Of a DNA stretch of 64,000 nt, positions 50,491 through 60,311 are shown piece by piece. The notes below the pieces were generated by a model. It did not search any database. It had not been told where the DNA came from and saw only the letters and a program-made list of their open reading frames with translations. Within the stretch, counting starts at the first letter, position 1. Every line of letters begins with the position of its first letter. The DNA is from Cladopsammia gracilis (Eukaryota; Cnidaria; Anthozoa; Scleractinia; Dendrophylliidae): contig JAJGOT010000309.1 in NCBI GenBank assembly GCA_022457155.1, positions 822,501 through 886,500 on the forward strand, in the 5' to 3' direction. The position numbers and the translations under genes are program-made.

Positions 50491-50883
50491 CTACTGATTT
50501 AGGGATCTGCCTCCGTCAACACGAATCACTTGACCAGTGACATATCCCGCTGAGCATGAGCAAGCAAGAAACTCCACAGCCTTGACAACGTCACTGGTTT
50601 CACCCCTGCGATTCATGGGAACCTTTTTAAGATTTTATGCACTGGTTAATCCCATCGCGGACGTGTAATTGTTTACCCCCTGGTCGGGCGTAAAGATTGC
50701 TCCCGGACTGACACCGTTGACTCTGACAAAAGGCGCGAATTCTCTTGCTAGTGCCATGGTACACATCTGAAGCCCGGCTTTTGAAATGCAGTACACTGAA
50801 TAATCGATTCGCGGTCGGTCTGCATGGATGTCCAACAGGTTAATGATGTTTCCGCTTGACGACTTCAAGCTTGGGAAGGCAGC
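50491..50883 (-). CDS. Pterin fusion exon 4: pteridine reductase active site and C-terminus, internal TAA
   Basis: Acceptor [21 protein letters not shown] has an aspartate where most SDRs have the catalytic serine, a mark of PTR1/FolM enzymes. YCISKAGL is the YxxxK pair, followed by [16 protein letters not shown] at 50637-50635 interrupts the frame, but the same frame continues with [12 protein letters not shown] and ends [18 protein letters not shown] before TAG at 50493-50491. The conserved DGGRSL end past the stop shows the stop is either recent or an error. Confidence 0.83.
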
Positions 50884-52418
50884 CTAGAAAATATTCAACA
50901 TGTTCAAAAGTGGCAATAATACCAAGTTCACTTTGAATAATAGTGAAATTTAGCATCGCATTTTTCCCGGAAAACGGCAAACCTGGAAGATGTCACGTGA
51001 CCATGGTCTTGCCGTCACGTTTGCAGTGCTCGGTTCAGGTGTCAACGGCAGGAACCCCTTCTAGCGTAAGTGACTTAGCCAAGGGTTTTTGACAATTTAA
51101 ACTAACAAACCCACGTTTAGGCGAAAATTTAGGCTTTGTATTTGTATGCTGCTAAAATGTTAAGTTTTTAACATTTAAAGATGAGATCCCTTACAGAAAT
51201 TGAGTACGTTGAAGTACACTTCAAGTATACTTCAAGTATACTTAGTATGTACTTCCCAGAAAAAAAAGTACACTTGAAGTATACTTCATTTAAACTTCAA
51301 GAAAAAAAGTATGAATGAAGTACATTTAGAAATGAGTACTTCATTTATACTTCAAATCTTGAAGTATACTTCAAGTATACTTGTGCAGACTTTTGTGTTT
51401 GTAAAAAATATATTTCCAAACTGAAGTATATTTTAAGTATACTTTCAAACTTGAAAACACATTTTGAGAGTATAATTCATATTTCTTCAAAACTGAAGTA
51501 TACTTTAAGTATACTTCAAACTGGTAAATTTAATTTCAGTGTTATATTCGATAATGTGACTTAAAAACAGGTATAGTTTAGTCACTTTTTTGCCATCAGA
51601 ATAGCATGGTTCTAGCTGAAATTAAATATATAAGCTGAAATTAAATATACCTTTAGATAATACTTGAACTCAGTCATTCTGACAGATATGGCATTTAATA
51701 GTTTCTTTATAATACAGCTTTACGCTGAAGTCATGTTTTACTTTTTATGTTCCATTCACTGATTTTTCAATAGGATAAAAGCTTTTTTATTCAATATTAA
51801 ATTAAACCTTAAATCTCAGACATCCAATTTACCTTTAAGTTAAGCTCAAACATAAAACAGAAGAAGAAACTGAGTAGGCTATCTGAGTCGATCAGCCTGT
51901 GTATTTAATGATATGCATGAAGTATATTTAAAGTATACTTCAAGTGTACTTCATGTAAAGTATACTTCAAGTATATATCTGAGTCAGCCTGTGTATTTCT
52001 TACTTGAAGTACACTTAAAGTATCTGGTAAGTATACTTCAAGTATACTTCATGTGAAGTATACTTCAAGTATATTTTAAAATGCTCAAAAGTAATGTACT
52101 TTAAGTATACTTATAAAATTTATTAATAATTCATAAGGAAAATACAAAAGAAATGAATGTTTAATGAAGGTTTGTAAACCCCAATACAGATCAACTGAGT
52201 TGATGAATTATTAAACAGTAGCATTAACTTTTGATACAGATCTCTGCTGAGCTAATTAGTATGCATTAACTTTTGATACAGATGTCTGCTGAGCTAATTA
52301 GTATGCATTAACTTTTCATATAGATCTCTACTCATTGTTTCATTTCATAAGTCAGATAAAATATTCGCGTCCGATCTGTATCGGCGTTTACAATGGCGAG
52401 CCGAAGGCGAGCCATTGT

Positions 52419-59100: not shown

Positions 59101-60311
59101 TCACTTTCACAATGTCCAGTTCGGAAAAAAAAGAAGAAAAGAAAGGGAAAATAAAAAATATATGTATTGCACGTCCAGGATTTGATCCCGTGTCAGCATT
59201 CGAACGGAATAACAGCAACCTATCAATTTTGCCATCCCGGATTAAATGACTTGTGAAAATAATAAAATTTTAACATTTCAAGGGAGATACGCATTAAGAA
59301 AAGTTTTCAGCCAGTGATTGCAGGAGTGAAAATTTGCATATCTGTCTCCGTCAACTTTAACTCCCCCAGGGGGTACTCCCTACCCCTCCCCGGGTTTTAA
59401 CTCCTTCAACGCTTCGCGTATTTACGAGTTAAAAACGACAAAGTTTGTTGTTTAAAGGACATATTTAAATACTTTAATATCCATCATCAGTTTTAAGGAT
59501 ATTATTAACATCAAAAATGATGTACTGGACATGAAACTGTAGGCTATTTACAAAATAATATACGGATAGTTACTCGAGCTTGTTAAAAATGTTGCATAAT
59601 ACACCAGGGGAATACAATAGCAATAAAATAAAATAAAGAAATCAATTTATAGCCATTTTTGCTTTTATTTGCTCACTATTATTATTGACGTGGGAAGTAT
59701 ACTTAAAAAATATATTTAAATGTATGAAATAGTTGTAAGTTGTACTTCCTCTTACCCTGCAAGATCAAGCTTGGTCCTTACAGCAGCTGCCATATTAATA
59801 AAATCCGCTTGCTCTTTGAACCCCACTGGTGTCGTTTTAAATTCTTTAGACAGCTTCACAATCTCCATGTCCTCCATCAACAATCTTAATGCCAGACGCA
59901 AGTTCTTTTCAGGTTCAATATTCGACCCAATCGATATATGAGCATCATGCCAATCAAAGTCTTCCCAGGAACGTACAATGGTCACAGACGAACTTTCACT
60001 GAATCGTAATATGTTCGGCTTTACTACAATCACTTTCACCGAAGGGACGCCATGACGCACCACGCAAATGCGCGCCACATCAGTTGCAACTGCTTCGATG
60101 AGGTTGTACTTCTTGTTCTCCACGTGAAAGAGAACATCTTTTGTAATGGTCTTGTAGTTGATCGTGTCTTCCACGCGATCTGTTTCGCCTGATTTCTTGG
60201 TGCAAGTTTTCAAATGTATGGTGATGTTGAGCTCTTGACGATTCCAAGCTCTTGAGGGCTGCAACCTACTTCAGTGCGCACGCGAAGGCCATTTATCTCC
60301 ACGACATCCAT
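50491..60311 (-). CDS. FolB-FolK-pteridine reductase fusion (DHNA / HPPK / PTR1-FolM type SDR), three apparent lesions
   Basis: A trifunctional pterin/folate enzyme. FolB cleaves dihydroneopterin to hydroxymethyl-dihydropterin, HPPK pyrophosphorylates it with ATP, and the PTR1/FolM domain reduces pterins with NADPH. Exons on the minus strand: 60311-59756, 57607-57062, 55843-55622, 50883-50491; introns 1 and 2 have GT-AG borders. Ideal length is about 572 residues: FolB 1-115, HPPK 124-276, linker, reductase 319-572. The start ATG (60311-60309) opens [11 protein letters not shown], a typical FolB N-terminus. Lesions: a one-base frame slip at about 60243, one at about 55631-55635, and an in-frame TAA at 50637-50635, 48 codons before the natural TAG. 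It could be a recent pseudogene or a functional gene with assembly errors. Three introns argue against bacterial contamination. Not a classical animal folate gene. Confidence 0.82.
51200..52120. repeat. Cluster of the palindrome AAGTATACTT
   Basis: More than a dozen copies of GAAGTATACTTC or near variants, single or in pairs separated by a few bases, spread over 0.9 kb in two clusters (51200-51530 and 51920-52115). Confidence 0.85.
52373..52437. repeat. Short perfect-type hairpin
   Basis: GGCGTTTACAATGGC and its complement separated by CGAGCCGAAGGCGA, flanked by inverted GATCTGTAT. Confidence 0.8.
52500..53560. repeat. 38-bp minisatellite array
   Basis: Units contain CTATCCTGTAAATAACATGT plus AAATCGAAAAAGGGGGG, in two blocks separated by a CATGTAAATGTATGTAAATG tract at about 52985-53050. 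Confidence 0.9.
53727..54450. repeat. 28-bp minisatellite array, about 25 copies
   Basis: Unit TCAGCTCGTACAAACAACAG plus CGATTGAC, highly regular. A single isolated unit lies at about 52452-52485 on the other side of the 38-bp array. Confidence 0.95.
54491..54832. mobile_element. GTACTCCC-type MITE
   Basis: Ends AAGCCCGGGGGTACTCCC and an inverted counterpart with a poly-C run. Same family as 17294-17720 and 61186-61888. Confidence 0.75.
55622..55843 (-). CDS. Pterin fusion exon 3: pteridine reductase middle
   Basis: Acceptor TATTCGCAG, then [26 protein letters not shown] (the SDR NNAS motif) and [14 protein letters not shown]. In the given frame the exon ends in a form that cannot reach exon 4. 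One extra T in the T5 run (A5 on the plus strand, 55631-55635) would read APFFPSQ and join exon 4 in phase 0 through the canonical GTAAGA donor at 55621. It would also match the common APFFxSQAA block of reductases of this class. I therefore read it as a one-base deletion. Confidence 0.82.
55955..56127. repeat. (TA)n microsatellites
   Basis: Runs at about 55955-56039 and 56099-56127 in pterin gene intron 2. They produce spurious Ile/Tyr frames. Confidence 0.95.
56416..56939. mobile_element. MITE in pterin gene intron 2
   Basis: Inverted ends ATTTAAAGTGCACATGAAGT continuing into GAAATTTCACTAC, about 33 bases each. Confidence 0.9.
57062..57607 (-). CDS. Pterin fusion exon 2: C-terminal HPPK, linker, start of pteridine reductase
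   Basis: Opens after a TTTCAG acceptor and runs 182 codons without a stop. [10 protein letters not shown] and [10 protein letters not shown] are the HPPK magnesium/ATP core, with the paired aspartates at about 213 and 215. [18 protein letters not shown] closes the HPPK fold. A linker of about 40 residues follows, then [13 protein letters not shown], the NADPH loop typical of PTR1/FolM reductases (TGAAKRxG), and YNVLIHYN. The HPPK-reductase junction lies inside one uninterrupted exon, so the fusion of these two domains is directly seen. Donor GTAACC, phase 2. Confidence 0.9.
57700..58065. repeat. 36-bp minisatellite, about 10 copies
   Basis: Unit ACAGACAGTCATACACTGAC plus AGACAGATAGGCTAAC with shortened variants, in pterin gene intron 1. 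Confidence 0.9.
58430..58870 (-). pseudogene. LINE 3' end (CR1/jockey-like) in pterin gene intron 1
   Basis: The minus strand reads [14 protein letters not shown], a stop, then [20 protein letters not shown] continuing [16 protein letters not shown], the terminal CCHC-like block of LINE reverse transcriptases. It ends in a (TTG)n tail on the same strand. Confidence 0.75.
59756..60311 (-). CDS. Pterin fusion exon 1: FolB domain and N-terminal HPPK
   Basis: Residues 1-185. FolB signatures: INGLRV near the start, a GxxPQELG loop, [31 protein letters not shown] and SVTIVRS, matching the usual folate-aldolase blocks. HPPK then begins with HISIGSN (about 125-131) followed by NLRLALRLL, and [16 protein letters not shown], the standard HPPK substrate loop. 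The frame of the first 23 codons does not join the frame of the rest. One missing base near 60243-60245 (in a GGAA context) would restore the expected spacing. The exon ends with donor GTAAGA at 59755, phase 2. Confidence 0.85.

What the first reader, a model, noticed from the sequence alone, without database searches (positions are those of the whole stretch)
50491..60311. Intron-bearing FolB-FolK-pteridine reductase fusion in an animal genome
Seen: three consecutive domain signatures (FolB, HPPK with [11 protein letters not shown]1-type TGAAKRIG / LLDIHADRP / YCISK / DGGRSL) on one strand over four exons, with the HPPK-reductase junction inside a single exon. Known: animals lack de novo folate synthesis, and the fungal fusion is FolB-HPPK-DHPS, not FolB-HPPK-reductase. 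Inference: horizontal acquisition of a bacterial or protist gene, later given introns. I do not know of a description of this architecture in cnidarians.
Basis: partly seen in the sequence, partly recalled or inferred. Interest (0 to 1): 0.92.

Follow-up and report, generated by a model that had tools for sequence, protein, structure and literature searches.

The report
Coral three-part pterin enzyme gene
A coral genome carries a gene that joins three bacterial-type vitamin-pathway enzymes into one protein; the same joined protein occurs in other corals and anemones and in some single-celled eukaryotes, and the copy in this window appears to be broken.

Summary
The gene is real. Four GT-AG exons on the minus strand (60311-50491) encode FolB-type, HPPK and PTR1-type domains in that order. 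It belongs to an anthozoan family: a 586-aa orthologue lies on a 25.6-Mb Oculina contig, others are in Actinostola and three unnamed mRNA-like contigs, and a Nematostella protein keeps only the reductase residues. The same fusion occurs in five other sequences, one labelled as a EukProt transcript that I take for Euglena gracilis, one with GTP cyclohydrolase I added. Ten fused FolB-HPPK halves form one clade (100/99) beside Chloroflexota; the reductase lies beside Gammaproteobacteria, with weaker support. I favour one old fusion of bacterial parts shared among eukaryotes; its route is open. Different domains have decayed in different anthozoans. A Nematostella folB-folK of questionable provenance was reported in 2014 (PMC4224340); my ten searches showed no description of the triple fusion. 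Function in animals is inferred.

The parts
59756..60311 (-). Exon 1: FolB-type domain (about 60311-59965) and first half of HPPK
60238..60245 (-). Frame break in FolB, one base short relative to the orthologues, at about 60242
   Evidence: frames of exon 1; tblastn segments in two frames
57608..59755 (-). Intron 1 (inside HPPK), with a 34-bp tandem array
57062..57607 (-). Exon 2: second half of HPPK and start of the PTR1-type reductase (from about 57195)
57532..57534 (-). ATA (Ile) codon in place of the HPPK PRxxDxD Arg
55844..57061 (-). Intron 2 (inside the reductase)
55622..55843 (-). Exon 3: reductase middle part (NNAS)
55626..55632 (-). Frame break just before the exon 3 donor, one base short relative to the orthologues
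50884..55621 (-). Intron 3 (inside the reductase), rich in tandem repeats
50491..50883 (-). Exon 4: reductase C part ([21 protein letters not shown], final stop)
50635..50637 (-). In-frame TAA inside exon 4

Best explanation
This is the coral copy of a eukaryotic triple pterin enzyme, FolB type - HPPK - PTR1/FolM type, probably made once by joining bacterial genes and now found in hexacorals and in some protists. In an intact protein the FolB-type domain would act on dihydroneopterin (aldolase to 6-hydroxymethyl-dihydropterin, or epimerase), HPPK would pyrophosphorylate the hydroxymethyl product, and the reductase would use NADPH to bring dihydropterins (perhaps dihydrofolate) to the tetrahydro level. 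If the host has no dihydropteroate synthase, the reductase is the part with a clear use, as its retention in Nematostella suggests. In this window the gene is probably a recent pseudogene. Shown: architecture, orthologues, FolB-HPPK clade, lesions in this assembly. Inferred: activities, single fusion, pseudogene status, host use.
For: Domains and exons. Orthologues P0001-P0005 at 56-69% identity, P0001 on a 25.6-Mb contig. Same domain order in P0006, P0008, P0009, P0018 and P0019. Ten fused FolB-HPPK rows form one clade, 100/99, and eight do, 100/98, when the two longest protist rows are left out. The reductase passes the NCBIfam pteridine reductase model (cut-off 288) in 4 of 6 proteins scanned: P0001 339, P0003 331, P0007 319, P0004 294. 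The fused order differs from the usual bacterial order: the reductase lies upstream of FolB and HPPK in 44 of 46 loci that hold all three, and 0 of the 80 loci kept have all three in one ORF, so one shared order in anthozoans and protists speaks for one fusion. Lesions: two frame breaks, one stop, one lost HPPK Arg.
Against: For the reductase the fused clade is weak (91/73), and a tree with anthozoans beside four gammaproteobacterial-type rows and without the protists is not rejected (p-AU 0.48). The other 2 of 6 scanned, P0018 (258 bits) and P0008 (236), miss the pteridine reductase cut-off. The FolB-type domain misses both the aldolase and the epimerase equivalog cut-offs. The window differs at 33 of 275 anthozoan-invariant positions (two of these come from my joining of frames), against 14 of 293 for Oculina, 32 of 311 for P0002 and 36 of 315 for P0003, the latter three judged on a slightly looser set: at most a modest excess, so the gene was under constraint until recently or the lesions are assembly errors. 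No activity, read or transcript of this coral was examined.
Confidence: 0.58

Rival explanations
1. The gene is intact in the living coral and the three lesions are errors of this assembly.
For: Two of three lesions are single missing bases, a common long-read assembly error (recalled); conserved positions are mostly kept; intact orthologues exist.
Against: The stop and the HPPK Arg-to-Ile change look like substitutions; three lesions in about 1.7 kb of coding sequence.
Confidence: 0.33
2. The chief use is a tetrahydropterin route (FolX-like epimerase plus FolM-like reductase, as in bacterial tetrahydromonapterin synthesis) rather than folate synthesis, HPPK being a passenger.
For: The FolB-type domain scores higher to FolX than to FolB (89.3 against 68.0 bits; first PDB hit labelled epimerase); the FolB Tyr is replaced in 5 of 5 protist rows and in P0002; folM genes are proposed to be pterin reductases (PMC1971073, passages).
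Against: Neither equivalog cut-off is met; HPPK residues are kept in 10 of 12 rows, the exceptions being Nematostella and the window.
Confidence: 0.3
3. Old vertical inheritance: the fusion was present in an early eukaryote and was lost in most lines, with no transfer between eukaryotes.
For: Anthozoans and protists are separate clades in both trees, so no coral gene nests inside a protist group.
Against: Very patchy distribution in the three searches, though each scored only about 8000 candidates and most hits are unnamed.
Confidence: 0.3
4. Anthozoans and protists made the same fusion independently.
For: The reductase tree does not reject it (p-AU 0.48); bacterial HPPK-SDR fusions in L073 and L076 and an SDR-FolB protein P0012 show that fusions of this kind recur.
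Against: FolB-HPPK clade 100/99; separating anthozoans from protists costs 24 log units, p-AU 0.047; same order in all ten, unlike 44 of 46 bacterial clusters.
Confidence: 0.12
5. Contamination: the window is not coral DNA.
For: The window's own assembly could not be queried.
Against: GT-AG introns with repeats, 72% identity to an Oculina protein on a 25.6-Mb contig, ankyrin exons in the same window.
Confidence: 0.02

Closest known systems
Putative folB-folK of Nematostella vectensis (Maguire et al. 2014, PMC4224340)
   Same: Probably the same anthozoan gene; P0007 is its likely counterpart, and its N half is homologous to FolB-HPPK of Oculina (E 2e-11).
   Different: That paper (abstract, 12 passages and section 14 seen) set it aside as poorly alignable and of questionable provenance; the passages seen mention no pterin reductase domain. 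Here P0007 is seen to have lost the FolB and HPPK site residues and kept those of the reductase.
FolB-HPPK-DHPS fusion of Amorphea (fungal type)
   Same: FolB and HPPK joined in the same order.
   Different: Third domain is an SDR pteridine reductase; no DHPS (PF00809) in P0001-P0009.
folB-folK of Branchiostoma floridae (PMC4224340)
   Same: Animal folB-folK on native DNA, ascribed there to bacterial transfer.
   Different: Two domains; grouped with Planctomyces in that paper. Not compared here.
Bacterial reductase-folB-folK clusters and FolB-HPPK fusions of Chloroflexota
   Same: Same three families side by side; the 20 rows nearest the fused clade (19 Chloroflexota) match Oculina at 35-51% in their best segment.
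   Different: Separate genes with the reductase first in 44 of 46 loci; their reductases are not the nearest to the coral one.
Gammaproteobacterial pteridine reductase (PRK09135), FolM, trypanosomatid PTR1
   Same: TGX3RXG motif, YxxxK; 48-49% identity to L012 and L002; top PDB hits are pteridine reductases.
   Different: Stand-alone proteins; the five protist fused forms have TGX3KXG.

Membership tests
FolB family (TIGR00526 FolB domain) | Score over the domain cut-off, 45.05 bits | tested here: met
   Oculina 86.4, window exon 1 61.3, P0018 63.7; P0008 43.2 just misses
Dihydroneopterin aldolase, equivalog TIGR00525 | Score over 72.15 bits | tested here: not met
   Oculina 68.0, P0018 50.9, window exon 1 43.1, P0008 23.8
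FolX epimerase, equivalog PRK11245 | Score over 152 bits | tested here: not met
   Oculina 89.3, window exon 1 70.4, P0018 59.8, P0008 43.9
FolB aldolase | Site residues Glu, Tyr, Glu, Lys (roles recalled) | tested here: inconclusive
   All four in P0001, P0003, P0004 and, before and after its frame break, in the window; Tyr replaced in P0002, P0007 and 5 of 5 protist rows, kept in 78 of 78 bacterial rows
HPPK (TIGR01498 folK) | Score over 54.1 bits | tested here: met
   Oculina 93.2; the window's two exon halves score 39.9 and 28.8 apart, so the window itself was not scored whole
HPPK | Arg and two Asp of the PRxxDxD motif | tested here: inconclusive
   Met in 10 of 12 rows; window has Ile for Arg; Nematostella has none of the three
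Pteridine reductase (NF006598/PRK09135) | Score over 288 bits | tested here: met
   4 of 6 scanned: P0001 339, P0003 331, P0007 319, P0004 294; not met by P0018 258 and P0008 236. The window was scanned only in pieces
PTR1/FolM | TGX3RXG motif (PMC1971073) | tested here: met
   Arg in the window and 6 of 6 anthozoan proteins; Lys in 5 of 5 protist rows
SDR reductase | YxxxK catalytic pair | tested here: met
   Window YCISK, although after a frame break; replaced by Cys and Asn in P0004
FolB-HPPK-DHPS fusion | DHPS domain PF00809 | tested here: not met
   Absent from the Pfam column of P0001-P0009 and from the exon scans
Complete folate synthesis in the animal | DHPS and pABA synthesis encoded by the host | not tested
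   The host genome search did not complete (12 calls); literature leads only

The most novel reading that the evidence does not exclude
A ready-made triple pterin enzyme, built from Chloroflexota-like and Gammaproteobacteria-like parts, passed from a protist to an ancestral hexacoral, gave these animals part of the folate/pterin route, and is now being dismantled domain by domain: reductase residues lost in one anthozoan, FolB-HPPK residues in another, all three domains hit in this coral.
Probability: 0.3. Interest if true: 0.8.

Novelty: new variant of a known kind. Interest (0 to 1): 0.6.

Why it matters
[quoted passage not shown] An anthozoan protein with FolB, HPPK and reductase site residues all in place (Oculina P0001, and the unnamed P0003) makes the question whether some corals make or recycle folate-type pterins themselves directly testable, and bears on what they need from symbionts. 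It also offers an explanation for a question mark left in the literature (Nematostella folB-folK) and gives a shared fusion with which to trace a gene among distant eukaryotes.

Tried and rejected
Viral carrier: 17 stretches in viral contigs matched a pattern, none encoded a relative. A plain FolB label: the domain scores nearer FolX, but neither equivalog is met, so 'FolB-type' is used. An excess of changes at conserved sites as proof of a long-dead gene: at most modest. Structure models of P0001 (mean pLDDT 69) and P0007 (56) were made and not used further. A PDB look at the neighbouring TRPA-like exon gave only E 0.03 and 0.09. The third protein search found no new fused protein. In one search I joined the two FolB frames a few residues early; the changes G23W and K24N listed there, and the X at E21, come from that join. 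In one search the row of P0009 still held its FolB-HPPK part, and the label 'bact' of the motif count includes four protist rows; the counts given here are corrected for that. I used no neighbouring gene as a lesion control, having no homologue of one in hand.

Literature: ten searches of open-licence PMC papers. I saw their listings (20 of 591, 20 of 31, otherwise the full list); none of the listed titles or abstract starts describes the triple fusion. Opened: PMC4224340 (abstract, passages, section 14), PMC1971073, PMC3750612 and PMC3405516 (passages), PMC3909931 (passages, section 10). PMC3405516 gave nothing decisive on the site residues.
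Full report
Observation. The gene lies on the minus strand, 60311 to 50491, in four exons (60311-59756, 57607-57062, 55843-55622, 50883-50491) with GT-AG introns. Pfam finds FolB and the first half of HPPK in exon 1, the second half of HPPK in exon 2 and short-chain reductase in exons 3 and 4; the reductase start in exon 2 is below its cut-off on its own. tblastn with the Oculina protein recovers five segments at E 1.6e-81 to 3e-6; 20 shuffled windows give at best 0.22. 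The FolB-HPPK and HPPK-reductase junctions lie inside exons, and the three introns fall inside domains, so the fusion is not made of domain-sized exons.

Condition of this copy. The frame is one base short, relative to the orthologues, at about 60242 in FolB and at about 55630 at the end of exon 3, and a TAA interrupts exon 4 at 50637-50635. The HPPK motif reads APIAIDLD where 78 of 78 bacterial rows and 10 of 11 fused proteins have Arg after the Pro; Nematostella is the exception. TGCTCA stands twice in tandem near the end of exon 4, making it two residues longer there than Oculina. At positions invariant among P0001-P0004 the window differs at 33 of 275 (two are artefacts of my joining of frames); judged against three others each, Oculina differs at 14 of 293, P0002 at 32 of 311 and P0003 at 36 of 315; P0004 was not judged this way. 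I read this as a recent pseudogene, about two to one over assembly error. No reads or second assembly could be checked.

An animal gene family. Of 17 proteins with E up to 0.001 in the first search, P0001 (Oculina patagonica, 586 aa, named isoform X3, contig of 25.6 Mb), P0002-P0004 (unnamed contigs of 1.9-2.7 kb with open frames of 572-588 aa, hence probably transcripts) and P0005 (Actinostola, 387 aa, shorter model) are close; P0007 is Nematostella. That P0002-P0004 are anthozoan is inferred from identity and trees. The window is 72% identical to Oculina over 561 positions, 68% to P0002 and P0003, 59% to P0004. Ankyrin exons lie elsewhere in the window. The window's own assembly could not be queried.

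Relatives outside animals. P0006, P0008 and P0009, and P0018 and P0019, have the same order FolB-HPPK-reductase; P0008 adds GTP cyclohydrolase I. P0018 bears the EukProt label EG_transcript_3756, which I take for Euglena gracilis (recalled; no call names the organism). The other four are unnamed; I call the five 'protist' for short, by inference. P0006 and P0019 group with P0018 (100/99). A third search added none. Each search scored only about 8000 candidates and most hits lack names, so absence of other taxa, dinoflagellates included, is not shown.

Origin. 46 have all three domains; in 44 the reductase lies upstream of FolB and HPPK on the same strand, in 2 (L002, L012) it faces them; none has all three in one ORF. 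In the FolB-HPPK tree of 88 rows the ten fused rows are one clade (100/99) and anthozoans and protists each one (100/99), next to 20 rows of which 19 are labelled Chloroflexota (98/97 for the 30 together). Holding anthozoans with those 20 and protists outside costs 24 log units, p-AU 0.047, a borderline rejection. In the reductase tree of 72 rows the ten fused rows are together at 91/73 only, and with four gammaproteobacterial-type rows (two labelled Pseudomonadota, two unnamed) at 97/88; anthozoans with those four and without the protists is not rejected, p-AU 0.48. Window and Nematostella were not in the FolB-HPPK tree, Actinostola and the window not in the final reductase tree. The loci came from FolB and HPPK patterns, so reductase sampling is thin.

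Likely working. Oculina passes the folK and pteridine reductase models and the general FolB-domain model, but neither the aldolase nor the FolX epimerase equivalog. HPPK motif residues are kept in 10 of 12 rows (not Nematostella, not the window). The FolB Tyr is replaced in 5 of 5 protist rows, in P0002 and in Nematostella. P0004 has lost the reductase Tyr and Lys; being a single unnamed contig it may hold errors. Nematostella has lost FolB and HPPK residues while keeping those of the reductase, and its N half is still recognisably FolB-HPPK (E 2e-11). Site roles are recalled. The plain reading is a pterin enzyme: dihydroneopterin to hydroxymethyl-dihydropterin (or epimer), its pyrophosphate, and NADPH reduction of dihydropterins. 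De Crecy-Lagard et al. 2007 (PMC1971073, passages) predict that folM-like genes, several of them beside pterin genes, are pteridine reductases rather than folate enzymes, which fits. Without DHPS the HPPK product would have no known use. Two leads on the rest of the pathway are weak: Acropora digitifera annotated with PabBC by KEGG (PMC3750612, passages), and folP among the names on a folate map of two anemones built from EC numbers (PMC3909931, section 10; which species has it is shown only by colour in a figure not held).

Prior work. Maguire et al. 2014 (PMC4224340: abstract, passages and section 14) report a putative Nematostella folB-folK removed for poor alignment, a Branchiostoma folB-folK and a Trichoplax folB. 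The decay seen in P0007 would explain the poor alignment. No listing of my ten searches showed the triple fusion in a cnidarian.

Verdict. Observation right; interpretation half right. A real, little-described animal member of a eukaryotic triple pterin fusion, with a probably broken copy in this window.

Noticed in passing
P0008: A 949-aa protein joins FolB-HPPK-reductase with GTP cyclohydrolase I and begins with a hydrophobic stretch: a four-part pterin enzyme from an unnamed source.
   Followed up: partly
P0004, Oculina positions 480-496: Reductase Tyr and Lys replaced by Cys and Asn and two residues missing nearby, in an otherwise well-kept fused protein.
   Followed up: partly
P0006, P0008, P0009, P0018, P0019: FolB Tyr is Leu or Ile and the reductase motif is TGX3KXG in all five rows.
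   Followed up: partly
L073 3965-5230, L076 3887-5224: Planctomycetota HPPK-SDR single-ORF fusions; the SDR is far from the coral reductase in the tree.
   Followed up: partly
P0012: Unnamed 402-aa protein with the opposite order, reductase then FolB.
   Followed up: no
L002 1005-4033, L012 3998-6189: Gammaproteobacteria: the nearest bacterial reductase gene faces folK-folB at about 1.5 and 0.7 kb.
   Followed up: partly
   Followed up: partly
window 52683-54450, 57711-58058: Minisatellite arrays in introns 3 and 1: 37-bp units, 28-bp unit x 25, 34-bp unit x 11.
   Followed up: no
window 58535-58813 -: ORF in intron 1 with a CxxC...H...C pattern like the tail of a LINE reverse transcriptase (recalled; only a below-cut-off zinc-ribbon hit).
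   Followed up: no
window 51212-52073: Repeated AAGTATACTTC palindromes in intron 3 just upstream of exon 4.
   Followed up: no
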